DNA of 64,000 bases from Loigolactobacillus iwatensis (GTDB taxonomy: Bacteria > Bacillota > Bacilli > Lactobacillales > Lactobacillaceae): positions 1 to 64,000 of the forward strand of contig NZ_RHNP01000015.1 of the NCBI RefSeq assembly GCF_003950295.1. Direction: 5' to 3'. Position numbers and translations under genes: made by a program. The notes beneath the pieces were generated by a model, which saw nothing but the letters and a program-made list of their open reading frames with translations, was not told where the DNA came from and ran no database searches. This document shows positions 49,863 to 54,882 of the stretch, piece by piece; the stretch's first letter is position 1; each line of letters opens with the position of its first letter.

Positions 49863-50672
49863 ATGCAAAAATACGATGTAACCAAGACTGCGATTAAAAC
49901 TTTTTCGCAACCAGAACACGAGATTGCTTTACAAACTAATGATTTACACGTTTATTATGGGGACCATGAACAGATTAAAGGTGTTGCTTTGCAGTTTGAA
50001 CGGTATAAAATTTCGGCAATCATTGGTCCTTCTGGTTCAGGAAAATCAACGTATTTACGGGCGTTGAACCGGATGAATGATGAGATTCAATCTGCGAAGG
50101 TTACCGGCTCAATTATGTACCGTGATTTGGATGTGAATTCTCCGCAAGTTGATGTTTATGAAATGCGTAAACACATTGGAATGGTATTTCAGCGGCCGAA
50201 TCCATTTGCAAAATCAATTTATGATAACATTGCCTTTGCCTTACGCCGCCATGGAATTAAAAAGAAGGCGACATTAGACGAAATAGTGGAAAAAACATTG
50301 CGTCAGGCAGGTCTTTGGAAAGAGGTTAAAGATAGCCTATCCAAAAGTGCCTTAGCACTTTCGGGCGGGCAACAACAACGTTTATGTATTGCGCGTGCGT
50401 TAGCCTTGAAACCGGATATCTTATTACTTGATGAGCCTGCTAGTGCGCTTGATCCAATTTCCACAAGTGTCGTGGAAGATACGTTAACCCAATTAAAAAA
50501 AGATTACACGTTAATCGTTGTGACCCATAATATGCAGCAGGCTGCCCGAATTAGCGACTATACGGCGTTCTTTTATGACGGTTACGCCTTGGAATATGGT
50601 GCAACAAATCAAATTTTTACGCAGCCAAAGCTTAAGGCAACTGATGATTATATCTCGGGAAATTTTGGCTAA
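49863..50672 (+). CDS. pstB: Phosphate ABC transporter ATPase PstB, first copy
   Basis: A 269-residue ABC ATPase: Walker A GPSGSGKST near 51-59, the PstB-specific LRALNRMNDEI, Q-loop GMVFQRPNPF, signature [15 protein letters not shown], Walker B ILLLDEPASALDP and the H-loop [13 protein letters not shown]. An N-terminal extension of about 20 residues distinguishes it from the second copy. Tandem pstB genes are common in Firmicutes and may form a heterodimer. Confidence 0.94.
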   Translation: MQKYDVTKTAIKTFSQPEHEIALQTNDLHVYYGDHEQIKGVALQFERYKISAIIGPSGSGKSTYLRALNRMNDEIQSAKVTGSIMYRDLDVNSPQVDVYEMRKHIGMVFQRPNPFAKSIYDNIAFALRRHGIKKKATLDEIVEKTLRQAGLWKEVKDSLSKSALALSGGQQQRLCIARALALKPDILLLDEPASALDPISTSVVEDTLTQLKKDYTLIVVTHNMQQAARISDYTAFFYDGYALEYGATNQIFTQPKLKATDDYISGNFG

Positions 50673-50709: not shown

Positions 50710-51465
50710 ATGACTGCTATTATCGAAACCAACGACACACATTTATATTACGGAAAAAAAGAGGCACTAAAGGGAATTAGTATGGCTTTTACTGCCAACG
50801 AAATTACGGCATTAATTGGCCCCTCTGGTTGTGGTAAATCAATACTGCTCAGAACGTTGAATCGAATGAATGATTTAATTCCTAACGTCACGATAACTGG
50901 AAAGGTCACCTTAAACGGACAAGATATTTACGCGCCAGAAATGGATATAGTGGAATTACGAAAGGAAGTTGGCATGGTTTTTCAACAGCCAAATCCGTTT
51001 CCTTTCTCGGTTTATGATAACGTCGTTTATGGACTCCGCTTAGCCGGTATTCATGATAAAGGACAATTGGATGAGGCCGTTGAAACAAGTTTAAAGGCTG
51101 CTTCAGTTTGGGAAGAGACGAAGGATGTTTTGCACCAAAGTGCTTTGGCCTTATCTGGTGGCCAACAGCAACGCGTTTGTATTGCTAGAGTTTTGGCCGT
51201 TAAGCCGGCCGTTATTTTACTAGATGAACCGACCAGTGCCTTAGATCCAATTTCTAGTTCTAAAATCGAAACCATGTTGCTGACTTTGAAAAAGGACTAT
51301 TCAATTATTTTAGTAACGCATAATATGCAGCAGGCTGGCCGAATATCTGACCGAACGGCGTTCTTTTTGGATGGTCGTCTAGTCGAATATACCAACACAA
51401 CAAAATTTTTCACCAATCCAAACAAACAAGAAAGTGAAGATTATATTTCTGGTCGTTTTGGTTAA
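50710..51465 (+). CDS. pstB: Phosphate ABC transporter ATPase PstB, second copy
   Basis: A 251-residue PstB paralogue with GPSGCGKSI (Walker A; the residue after Ser is Ile where Thr is usual, while the Mg-binding Ser is kept), [25 protein letters not shown], signature [15 protein letters not shown], and [20 protein letters not shown] precedes the start. It lies 37 bases after the first copy and before phoU in the same operon. Confidence 0.94.
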
Positions 51466-52430: not shown

Positions 52431-53909
52431 ATGAATGAACGTGAACGAATTTTAGACTTAGTAAAAAAAGGGATCATTTCAACTGATGAAGCTTTGAGCT
52501 TATTAGAAAATAGCGCCAAAGATAAAAGTACCGCAGAACAACAGACGACAACGAAGGTAACACCAGAGAAATCAACTGAGGAACAATCAACAGATAAAAA
52601 AAATGAGCAGGAACAAGATGAATTAGCTAATGAAGTTGAAGAACTTCAAACTAAGACACAACAGATTAATGAACAATTAACCCAGAATACTCGCGATTTA
52701 AAGACTCAGCAAGAACACTTACAGGTTTTGAATACAATGGAAGATTTAGAAACGTTATCCACCGAAAAAGTTCAAGATCGGGATGAGACAAAAGAAAAGA
52801 TTGGCCAATTAGAAAGCAAGCAGGCTAATTTAACTGATTCAAAGCGTCACTTACAGCATGAACTGGCTGCAAAGCGTCACGAACAACGGGATAAAATTAA
52901 AAATCACTTGGCCGACAAACTTAATTTAGGTGACGAGTGGCGGGACAACGCAACGGATACGTTAAATCAAGTGGGCGAAAAAGTTGGTGAGGCTGGCAGT
53001 CAGTTTGGTCAGTTCATTAAGGGTACGGCACAGACGATTATGGATAACGTTGACTGGAAAGACGTTAACATTAAGGTACCTGGTATTGCGACAACAAAAT
53101 TTGAACATGAGTTTAATTACGCTGACACGACGGCCTCAATCTTAGATGTTAAGGTTGCTAACGGGGACGTTAAGCTGAAGACTTGGGATGGTAATGACAT
53201 TAAGGTCAGTGTTAGCGGTAAGCTGTACGGTAAGATGGCAGACGTTAGTCCGTTAGAAAATTTCTTACAGCGGAGTGAGATTGCGATTGATGCAGATGTT
53301 TTTACCTTTAAAGTGCCAAATAAGCGAATTCAGGCCAATCTAACCTTCTACCTACCTAAGCGGACCTATGATCACACCACAATTAAGTTATTAAATGGTG
53401 ACGTTGATCTAACCGATTTTGAGGGCGAAGATTTATATATTAAGAGCACCAATGGCCAGATGACGTTTACTGGCGTTAATGCCTCAATGCTTGAAGTTGA
53501 AGGCGTTAATGGTAATATTAAGGTAAATGGTGGTCGTTTGATTGATGCCTTATTAAATACAATTAACGGTGAGGTTAAATTCATGAGTAACGCTGAGTCA
53601 GTAGAATTGACCACTGTTAATGGTGAGGTTAAGGCTACTGTTAATGAAACAACGTTAACCAAGTTGGTCGCCAGCTCTGTTAATGGTAACGTCAAAATTG
53701 CTTTGCCAGAGGATCTAGCAGTTACTGGCCAAACTAAGACACGTTTTGGCGCGATCAAATCACGTTTAAGCGAAGTCACGGTAACTAATGAACGGCATAA
53801 TACCGGTAATTCAGTTTACGATTTTGAACGTGATCTTAGCACGCCACCGGCAAAGTTAACTTTAAGTACAACTTCAGGGAATATTTTATTAAAGAATACT
53901 AAGGCGTAG
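52431..53909 (+). CDS. liaX: LiaX/YvlB-like envelope stress protein (DUF4097)
   Basis: A 492-residue protein without a signal peptide. An N-terminal SHOCT-like helical hairpin (MNERERILDLVKKGIISTDEALSLLE) is followed by a long charged coiled coil (about 35-160), a short helix region and a C-terminal beta-helix of DUF4097 repeats (about 225-490; recurring VNGNVK/INGEVK/TNGQM turns). This is the layout of enterococcal LiaX, which senses daptomycin and antimicrobial peptides, and of Bacillus YvlB. AAGGAGG precedes the ATG. It heads an operon with three small membrane proteins. LiaFSR genes are not in the window. Confidence 0.82.
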   Translation: MNERERILDLVKKGIISTDEALSLLENSAKDKSTAEQQTTTKVTPEKSTEEQSTDKKNEQEQDELANEVEELQTKTQQINEQLTQNTRDLKTQQEHLQVLNTMEDLETLSTEKVQDRDETKEKIGQLESKQANLTDSKRHLQHELAAKRHEQRDKIKNHLADKLNLGDEWRDNATDTLNQVGEKVGEAGSQFGQFIKGTAQTIMDNVDWKDVNIKVPGIATTKFEHEFNYADTTASILDVKVANGDVKLKTWDGNDIKVSVSGKLYGKMADVSPLENFLQRSEIAIDADVFTFKVPNKRIQANLTFYLPKRTYDHTTIKLLNGDVDLTDFEGEDLYIKSTNGQMTFTGVNASMLEVEGVNGNIKVNGGRLIDALLNTINGEVKFMSNAESVELTTVNGEVKATVNETTLTKLVASSVNGNVKIALPEDLAVTGQTKTRFGAIKSRLSEVTVTNERHNTGNSVYDFERDLSTPPAKLTLSTTSGNILLKNTKA

Positions 53910-53931: not shown

Positions 53932-54180
53932 ATGATGCAGGCAAAAAGATTAGTAAAATCAAACAACCGGATTTTAAGTGGCGTTTTAGGAGGCATTGCG
54001 GACTATTTCAATTTAGATAAGACATTGGTTCGCTTGATTTATGCTGCCGCGGGGCTACTCACGGGCGTTGTACCTGCTGTTGTTATTTACCTCATTTTAG
54101 CGCTTGTCATGGCTGATGATCAGACTCCAAAGCAGACAACGACTGATCAAAGCCATGATGATGATTGGAGTGATTTCTAA
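53932..54180 (+). CDS. PspC domain membrane protein (YvlC/LiaY-like)
   Basis: An 82-residue PspC-domain protein: KRLVKSNNRILSGVLGGIADYFNLDKTLVRLIY is the PspC signature, given here in part by residues 4-36, followed by one membrane hairpin (about 37-62) and a polar tail ending DDDWSDF. PspC proteins take part in membrane stress responses; in enterococci LiaY has this domain and works with LiaX. It lies 22 bases after the liaX-like gene and overlaps the next start by one base. A second ATG one codon in is equally placed. Confidence 0.85.
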   Translation: MMQAKRLVKSNNRILSGVLGGIADYFNLDKTLVRLIYAAAGLLTGVVPAVVIYLILALVMADDQTPKQTTTDQSHDDDWSDF

Positions 54181-54473
54181 TGATGTTTTTACTATTACTA
54201 TTATTGGGCGCAATGATGCTCGTCTTTAGTCCAGCAATTGCACTTGTTTTATTGTTGGTCTTGTTGCTTTGGTTGCCATTACGATTTTTAGCCGTTCCAA
54301 TTTTATTAATCGTTATTTTCCATTTAGTAACAAAGAAGAATCATCATAATTACCATCATCGCCACTATAATTGGCGCCAAAGTAATTACCGCACGCAACC
54401 ACATTCGGCTGGCCGAGAACGTAAGGCGGCCCGAGATGTTAAAGTAGAAGACGATGACTGGAGTGATTTTTAA
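54180..54473 (+). CDS. Small membrane protein with DDDWSDF tail
   Basis: A 97-residue protein I do not recognise as a named family. Residues 1-48 are almost entirely hydrophobic (two adjacent membrane segments), residues 52-70 are rich in His, Tyr and Asn (KKNHHNYHHRHYNW), and the tail is charged and ends DDDWSDF, identical to the last seven residues of the PspC-type protein upstream. Start and stop both overlap the neighbouring genes by one base, so translation is coupled. A role together with the PspC protein is inferred from the shared tail. Confidence 0.75.
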   Translation: MMFLLLLLLGAMMLVFSPAIALVLLLVLLLWLPLRFLAVPILLIVIFHLVTKKNHHNYHHRHYNWRQSNYRTQPHSAGRERKAARDVKVEDDDWSDF

Positions 54474-54823
54474 TGGGTTTTTGGCAGCGAATTTTGGTGA
54501 ATGCCATTATCTTTTTGGCAATTGCTGGTTTTTTCCCCAACGCCCTCTTTGTTTCTAGTATTTGGATGGCCATCGGCGCTAGTTTAGTCCTGGGAATTTT
54601 AAATGCCCTGGTTAAACCTATCCTGACGCTTCTTTCTCTGCCCATCACACTATTAACATTGGGTCTATTCAGTATTATCATCAACGCGATTATGTTGCGC
54701 TTAACTGCCTTTTTCGTTGGGAGTGGTTTTGCTTTCAGCAGTTTTAGTTCAGCAATACTAGTTGCGATTGTTATTTCATTAGTTAATATGATCATTAGTA
54801 GTCATTTTGGTCGGGCGGCATAA
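54473..54823 (+). CDS. Phage holin family membrane protein (YvlD/LiaZ-like)
   Basis: A 116-residue protein with four membrane segments and the ILNALVKPILTLLSLPITLLTLGLFSIIINA core of the YvlD (phage holin family 4) group. In Bacillus yvlABCD and enterococcal liaXYZ this protein is the last of the operon, as here. It has no proven holin function. The start overlaps the preceding stop by one base; a strong terminator follows. Confidence 0.85.
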   Translation: MGFWQRILVNAIIFLAIAGFFPNALFVSSIWMAIGASLVLGILNALVKPILTLLSLPITLLTLGLFSIIINAIMLRLTAFFVGSGFAFSSFSSAILVAIVISLVNMIISSHFGRAA

Positions 54824-54831
54824 CTAAATAA

Positions 54832-54882
54832 ATGGGTAGTCGAGACAAAATAGATTTTTTGTCCTGGCTACCCATTTTTTTG
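54832..54882 (+). terminator. Terminator of the liaX-like operon
   Basis: AAATGGGTAGTCGAGACAAAA pairs imperfectly with TTTTGTCCTGGCTACCCATTT (coordinates 54832-54852 and 54858-54878), followed by T residues. Confidence 0.85.

What the first reader, a model, noticed from the sequence alone, without database searches (positions are those of the whole stretch)
54178..54473. Two neighbouring membrane proteins share the C-terminal tail DDDWSDF
The 82-residue PspC-type protein and the next, otherwise unrelated, 97-residue protein both end in DDDWSDF. The codons differ at three synonymous positions and at no non-synonymous one over the seven residues. A conserved exposed tail on two proteins of one envelope-stress operon suggests a common docking site, for example on the LiaX-like protein or on a protease that trims tails.
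Basis: partly seen in the sequence, partly recalled or inferred. Interest (0 to 1): 0.57.

Follow-up and report, generated by a model that had tools for sequence, protein, structure and literature searches.

The report
Shared LiaX-linked tail on membrane proteins
Two unrelated small membrane proteins of a bacterial stress operon end in the same acidic tail, which relatives carry on one or both proteins next to the stress sensor LiaX and lose when LiaX is gone, so it is probably the plug by which they grip LiaX.

Summary
LiaY (PspC-type, 82 aa) and the next, unrelated membrane protein ("mid", 97 aa) of a Loigolactobacillus liaX-liaY-mid-liaZ operon both end in DDDWSDF. This is not chance and not a recent duplication: the motif, roughly [DEN]-W-x-[DEN]-[FY]-COOH, recurs across Lactobacillales on LiaY, on mid, or on both. 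It tracks LiaX. Of 132 PspC proteins with a LiaX-like gene upstream, 123 carry it themselves or on the next gene; of 51 without, none carries it. At least two Lactobacillaceae lineages lost LiaX and the tail together, one keeping liaY, mid and liaZ in place. In LiaX, the columns that best separate tailed from tailless relatives are two basic residues on adjacent beta-helix rungs (K422, R445 here). Best explanation: a cytosolic docking tail for the LiaX toastrack domain. Against it: LiaF co-occurs with LiaX, so presence cannot separate the two; AlphaFold single-chain tests showed no convincing docking; one genus has the tail without the basic pair; published models place LiaX outside. A second constraint is clear: TGG-AGY of Trp-Ser also spells the GGAG ribosome site of the overlapping next gene.

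The parts
52431..53909 (+). liaX: SHOCT-like N-terminus, coiled coil, toastrack (DUF4097) beta-helix; proposed partner of the tail
   Evidence: NF038025 dapto_LiaX 632.8 bits, cut-off 350; PF13349, PF22746; no hydrophobic window (max KD19 0.92)
53694..53696 (+). codon of LiaX K422 (= K420 of L064 LiaX): second-best discriminating column
   Evidence: K in 136 of 138 tailed LiaX, 1 of 11 untailed; E25/D4/K1 of 41 Bacilli relatives; coordinates
53763..53765 (+). codon of LiaX R445 (= R443 of L064): best discriminating column
   Evidence: R in 136 of 138 tailed, 0 of 11 untailed, 1 of 41 Bacilli relatives; rank 1
53829..53831 (+). codon of LiaX R467 (= R465 of L064), third rung of the basic ladder
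   Evidence: R 129, K 4, H 3 of 138 tailed
53892..53894 (+). codon of LiaX K488 (= K486 of L064), fourth rung
   Evidence: K 137 of 138 tailed; less specific, K or R in 29 of 41 Bacilli relatives
53932..54180 (+). liaY, PspC-domain membrane protein, 82 aa
   Evidence: PF04024 E 7.9e-17
54157..54177 (+). tail 1, DDDWSDF
54167..54170 (+). GGAG inside the Trp-Ser codons: Shine-Dalgarno of mid (TAATG overlap)
54180..54473 (+). mid gene: 97-aa membrane protein without a database family, second carrier of the tail
   Evidence: no Pfam or NCBIfam match over cut-off; hydrophobic windows starting at 1-36
54420..54446 (+). membrane-proximal motif RKAARDVKV of mid, kept in most relatives that lost the W tail
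54450..54470 (+). tail 2, DDDWSDF
54460..54463 (+). GGAG inside the Trp-Ser codons: Shine-Dalgarno of liaZ (TAATG overlap)
54473..54823 (+). liaZ, holin-like membrane protein, no tail
   Evidence: PF04020 E 8.3e-28
54830..54877 (+). terminator-like hairpin after liaZ
   Evidence: MFE -26.6 kcal/mol, z -7.6

Best explanation
DDDWSDF is a conserved C-terminal short linear motif, core [DEN]-W-x-[DEN]-[FY]-COOH in an acidic context, carried on the cytosolic tails of LiaY and/or mid. It most likely docks these membrane proteins onto the toastrack domain of LiaX, with acidic side chains and the terminal carboxylate facing a ladder of basic residues on the last beta-helix rungs (K422, R445, R467, K488 here) and Trp/Phe as anchors. 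The operon needs at least one tailed protein. Shown: motif conservation, link with LiaX, joint loss, discriminating LiaX residues, double use of the Trp-Ser codons as a Shine-Dalgarno site. Inferred: direct binding, orientation, cytosolic side, and that docking couples LiaX state to LiaY, mid and LiaZ.
For: PspC proteins found with a model that excludes the tail: of 132 with a LiaX-like gene upstream, 113 have the tail on PspC and 123 on PspC or the next ORF; 0 of 51 without have it on PspC. LiaX-less Lactobacillaceae keep mid upstream of hprK, most with its RKxAR[DN]V-type motif, but 0 of 13 (L305-L317) have the tail; L317 keeps phoU-PspC-mid-liaZ-hprK with LiaX cleanly missing and both tails gone. 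hprK tree: at least two separate LiaX-less groups. LiaX columns 443 (R) and 420 (K), L064 numbering, rank 1 and 2 for separating 69 tailed from 52 untailed toastracks and are kept in 12 of 13 of the most divergent tailed LiaX; four basic positions are spaced 23/22/21, one per rung. LiaX has no hydrophobic segment; PspC is modelled with two adjacent membrane helices, so both ends on one side. Precedent: the cytoplasmic C-terminal domain of Yersinia PspC binds PspA (PMC5596341, passages); toastrack predicted to be a sub-membrane docking platform (PMC11237479, passages).
Against: LiaF over cut-off is present in 15 of 15 LiaX-positive and 0 of 21 LiaX-less genomes tested, so LiaF could be the partner. 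Twelve LiaX-less Streptococcus-like genomes with LiaF include PspCs with other acidic-aromatic ends (GWFW, DWTW, SPFF). AlphaFold of read-through chains: LiaX-LiaY gave only a slight confidence rise at the last six residues, LiaX-mid none. Genus g51 keeps the tail although 443 is E or D (L165, L207). The main tailed/untailed split of LiaX is few events, so the residue correlation is partly phylogenetic. Published models put LiaX, at least its N-terminal domain, outside the cell (PMC11601895, passages; PMC9752123, search listing).
Confidence: 0.52

Rival explanations
1. The tail docks on LiaF (whose C-terminal domain is toastrack-like) or another LiaFSR component, and tracks LiaX only because LiaX and LiaFSR are lost together.
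For: LiaF present in 15 of 15 LiaX-positive and 0 of 21 LiaX-less Lactobacillaceae tested; Streptococcus-like genomes without LiaX but with LiaF (12 of 12) keep an acidic-aromatic PspC end in most.
Against: Three Listeria-like genomes have LiaF but no such tail; the Streptococcus-like ends are not W-x-D-F; in LiaF no basic column is conserved in at least 16 of the 18 rows of tailed genomes (two of these rows were wrong ORFs), whereas LiaX has the best discriminating ones.
Confidence: 0.22
2. The tail is an RNA-level by-product: TGG-AGT-GAT in front of an overlapping TAATG is the Shine-Dalgarno site of the next gene, so both gene ends converged.
For: All 111 tails that overlap the next start have a codon completing GGAG or GGGG after TGG (110 Ser by AGY, 1 Gly by GGG); 15 of 56 non-overlapping tails have another residue there (D 8, N 3, G 3, R 1), Fisher p 1.9e-8, relatedness not corrected.
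Against: Tails without overlap are still widespread (56 of 167); the PspC of L317 keeps the TAATG overlap with another purine-rich site and no W tail; changes such as D/E and F/Y are conservative at protein level. It is a real second constraint, not the cause.
Confidence: 0.03
3. The tail binds a membrane enzyme or lipid-domain partner such as cardiolipin synthase or LiaZ, not LiaX.
For: LiaY-Cls1 two-hybrid signal and possible LiaY-LiaZ interaction in E. faecalis (PMC11601895, section 11 and passages).
Against: Tails persist in loci where no LiaZ follows, such as L089-L092 and Agrilactobacillus. Cls was not searched here.
Confidence: 0.1
4. The tail is a degron or trimming site for a protease.
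For: C-terminal position, exposed, hydrophobic end.
Against: 0 of 51 PspC proteins without LiaX have it, which a general protease would not predict; nothing positive found.
Confidence: 0.05
5. Recent duplication or gene conversion of gene ends.
For: Codon agreement of the two tails within a genome 67 of 101 against 0.565 shuffled (P 0.0065), though genome codon bias was not removed.
Against: Lineage-specific differences persist between the two tails: DEWSEF/DDDDWSDF, NWSNF/DEWSDF, NWSDF/NWDDF, DNWSDY/DNWNDF; here 3 of 6 variable codons differ.
Confidence: 0.03

Closest known systems
liaXYZ operon of Enterococcus (LiaFSR regulon)
   Same: LiaX, PspC-type LiaY and holin-like LiaZ in the same order, with liaY overlapping the liaZ start (overlap stated in PMC11601895); LiaY of Enterococcus-like genomes also ends in DDDWSDF or DDEWSDF
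   Different: an extra tailed membrane protein (mid) between liaY and liaZ; no tail described in the passages read or found
PspC cytoplasmic C-terminal domain binding PspA (Yersinia Psp system)
   Same: docking function of a PspC C-terminus in envelope stress (PMC5596341, passages)
   Different: a 5-7 residue acidic-aromatic motif, LiaX as proposed partner, and a second non-PspC carrier
yvlABCD of Bacillus and lmo2487-2484 of Listeria
   Same: toastrack, PspC and holin-like genes in one operon (PMC12791056, passages)
   Different: no W-x-D-F tail on the PspC found in 10 of 41 Bacilli loci or in three Listeria-like loci; 420/443 mostly acidic or small
SSB acidic C-terminal tail (recalled, no call)
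   Same: acidic run ending in a C-terminal Phe that docks partners
   Different: unrelated proteins; analogy only

Membership tests
LiaX (NCBIfam NF038025) | score over curated cut-off 350 bits | tested here: met
   632.8 bits over residues 1-489
LiaY / PspC family (PF04024) | liaY product has a PspC domain over the gathering score | tested here: met
   61.3 bits, cut-off 25
LiaY / PspC family (PF04024) | mid protein is also a PspC member | tested here: not met
   no PspC match for 54180-54470
liaXYZ operon | liaX, liaY, liaZ contiguous on one strand | tested here: met
   mid inserted between liaY and liaZ
liaXYZ operon | regulation by LiaFSR | tested here: inconclusive
   LiaF gene present in this genome; LiaR binding not tested
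LiaX-docking C-terminal motif (proposed here) | motif present only with LiaX, lost with it | tested here: met
   exceptions: three Listeria-like loci with a LiaX-like protein and no tail
LiaX-docking C-terminal motif (proposed here) | physical binding to the LiaX toastrack | tested here: inconclusive
   AlphaFold single-chain tests not convincing

The most novel reading that the evidence does not exclude
A C-terminal code for LiaX: any membrane protein of the operon can be recruited to the LiaX toastrack by acquiring a five-to-seven-residue tail [DEN]-W-x-[DEN]-F-COOH that is read by a charge-switched ladder (K422/R445) on the beta-helix. Unrelated carriers (PspC-type LiaY, mid) interchange across lineages, and the same codons serve as the ribosome site that couples their translation to the next partner.
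Probability: 0.4. Interest if true: 0.78.

Novelty: new variant of a known kind. Interest (0 to 1): 0.62.

Why it matters
How LiaX, the daptomycin- and peptide-sensing protein, passes its state to the membrane-remodelling proteins is described as an unknown mechanism (PMC11601895, passages). A defined tail and two defined LiaX residues turn that into a direct binding test, explain why an unrelated small protein sits in the lactobacillus operon, and bear on which side of the membrane LiaX works. It is also a clear case of a protein motif and a ribosome-binding site sharing codons.

Tried and rejected
Loose DNA pattern of the tail over 301 genomes: background about as frequent as the reversed control, not used. 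Solved structures by sequence: no match to LiaX. AlphaFold of LiaX-LiaY and LiaX-mid as single read-through chains: folds fine, docking not shown; no coordinates are returned, so contacts could not be checked. LiaF conservation: no tail-linked basic columns; two of its 18 rows from tailed genomes (L352, L353) were wrong ORFs. Codon agreement test for gene conversion: weakly positive, confounded by codon bias. Promoter/terminator scan: no more sites than shuffles. Mid hits L318-L320 are weaker and not beside hprK; they were left out of the count of 13 (none of the three has the tail either). One search left out the 30 pattern loci L033-L062 and identical proteins; two of its 51 PspC without LiaX upstream (L200, L205) lie in LiaX loci, and the L205 one ends DDNWDAF, a near-variant. 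The tailed/untailed labels use a pattern requiring W, [DENA], [FY], so invariance of W there is by definition; one search is the test free of that. The discriminating-column ranking used every second tailed LiaX, 69 of 138. Family names such as Streptococcus-, Enterococcus- or Listeria-like for unnamed G genomes are my inference from gene content.

Full report
Setting. The window holds, on the + strand, pst genes, phoU, liaX (52431-53909), liaY (53932-54180), an unnamed membrane protein here called mid (54180-54473), liaZ (54473-54823), then hprK, lgt and gpsA (phoU, liaX, liaY, liaZ and hprK, the others by recall). LiaX scores 632.8 bits with the dapto_LiaX model. The genome is a Loigolactobacillus: the nearest named LiaX is that of L. 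backii at 98%.

Observation. Both LiaY and mid end in DDDWSDF, with three synonymous differences. Among 60 unrelated proteins 6e-6 such pairs are expected. The D-W-S-D-F-stop pattern occurs nowhere else in the genome.

Distribution. NF038025 exceeds its cut-off in 44 of 301 Lactobacillaceae genomes and 170 of 395 genomes of the order. Reading downstream of liaX in the fetched loci shows: both LiaY and mid tailed in Loigolactobacillus, Latilactobacillus, Agrilactobacillus and several unnamed genera (28 distinct two-tail operons); mid alone in Lacticaseibacillus, genus g10 and one genome of the window's own genus (L106); LiaY alone in Enterococcus-like and most other families; and in eight loci a short tailless PspC followed by a tailed protein. 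The tail is thus a portable end. Of the loci read, those with a true LiaX have at least one tail, except three Listeria-like loci whose PspC ends in SEWRG, NTSWE or KSW.

Independence from the search motif. Using a PspC model built without the tail, 132 distinct PspC proteins had a LiaX-like gene upstream; 113 were tailed, and 123 counting the next ORF. The nine others are six weak toastracks under 50 bits and the three Listeria-like loci. Of 51 PspC proteins without a LiaX-like gene upstream, none was tailed.

Natural experiment. A mid profile without the tail found mid in LiaX-less genomes. Thirteen of the 16 fetched lie just upstream of hprK or of liaZ-hprK (11 of genus g37, one each of g40 and g28); most keep the RKxAR[DN]V-type motif, and none has the W tail. 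In L317 the order phoU-PspC-mid-liaZ-hprK is intact, LiaX is missing, and both proteins have lost the tail, while the PspC stop still overlaps the mid start with another purine-rich site. An hprK tree of 58 rows needs at least two separate LiaX-less groups in the family.

Where on LiaX. Tailed LiaX keep K420, R443, R465 and K486 (L064 numbering; K422, R445, R467, K488 in the window) in 136, 136, 129 and 137 of 138; the 11 untailed relatives have them in 1, 0, 3 and 2. In 41 Bacilli relatives outside the order, 420 is E or D in 29 and 443 is R in one. Over the toastrack, 443 and 420 are the two best separating columns (69 against 52 sequences), and both are kept in 12 of 13 very divergent tailed LiaX. 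The model places the four on successive rungs of the beta-helix, whose fold matches known toastrack-type structures. Exceptions: L165 and L207, one genus, keep the tail with 443 changed to E or D; L210 has M at 420.

Second constraint. Of 167 distinct tails, 111 overlap the next start, and all have a codon after TGG that completes GGAG or GGGG; of 56 that do not overlap, 15 have D, N, G or R there. Serine is never TCN. So the Ser of DDDWSDF is partly there for the ribosome; W, the acidic residues and F are protein-level.

Doubts. LiaF co-occurs with LiaX in 15 of 15 and is missing, by the model's cut-off, in 21 of 21 LiaX-less genomes. Twelve Streptococcus-like genomes with LiaF and without LiaX include PspC ends such as EENDGWFW, EEDDWTW and NDSPFF. 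This could be a relic, or a sign that LiaF is a partner. Structure prediction did not show docking. Published models place LiaX outside the cell, while a comparative study predicts toastracks inside; the absence of any hydrophobic stretch in LiaX favours inside, but this is unresolved.

Literature. Seen: PMC11601895 (abstract, passages, section 11), PMC10269926, PMC11237479, PMC12791056 and PMC5596341 (passages), PMC9752123 (search listing). Search for DDDWSDF, DDWSDF and DWSDF in the held library gave one hit, a game-theory paper; most subscription papers are not held, so the motif may be in print elsewhere.

Verdict. A real, old, LiaX-linked motif with two interchangeable carriers. The partner is most likely the LiaX toastrack (0.52), with LiaF as the main rival (0.22).

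Noticed in passing
L321-L335: Streptococcus-like PspC proteins (LiaF present, LiaX absent) mostly carry an RRKEAEPI-like motif and end in GWFW, DWTW or PFF: a different acidic-aromatic C-terminus.
   Followed up: partly
L305-L317: LiaX-less Lactobacillaceae keep the mid gene in front of hprK (13 genomes), with liaZ in two of them (L316, L317).
   Followed up: yes
window 54830-54877: Very stable terminator-like hairpin after liaZ (-26.6 kcal/mol, z -7.6).
   Followed up: yes
window 49863-50672 and 50710-51465: Two tandem pstB-like ABC ATPase genes upstream of phoU and liaX.
   Followed up: no
L255 (G000 contig C24): A second, tailless 61-aa PspC paralogue in the window's own genome, with no LiaX beside it.
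   Followed up: partly
L165, L207: One genus (g51 of family f5) keeps tailed partners although LiaX has lost the basic residue at 443.
   Followed up: no
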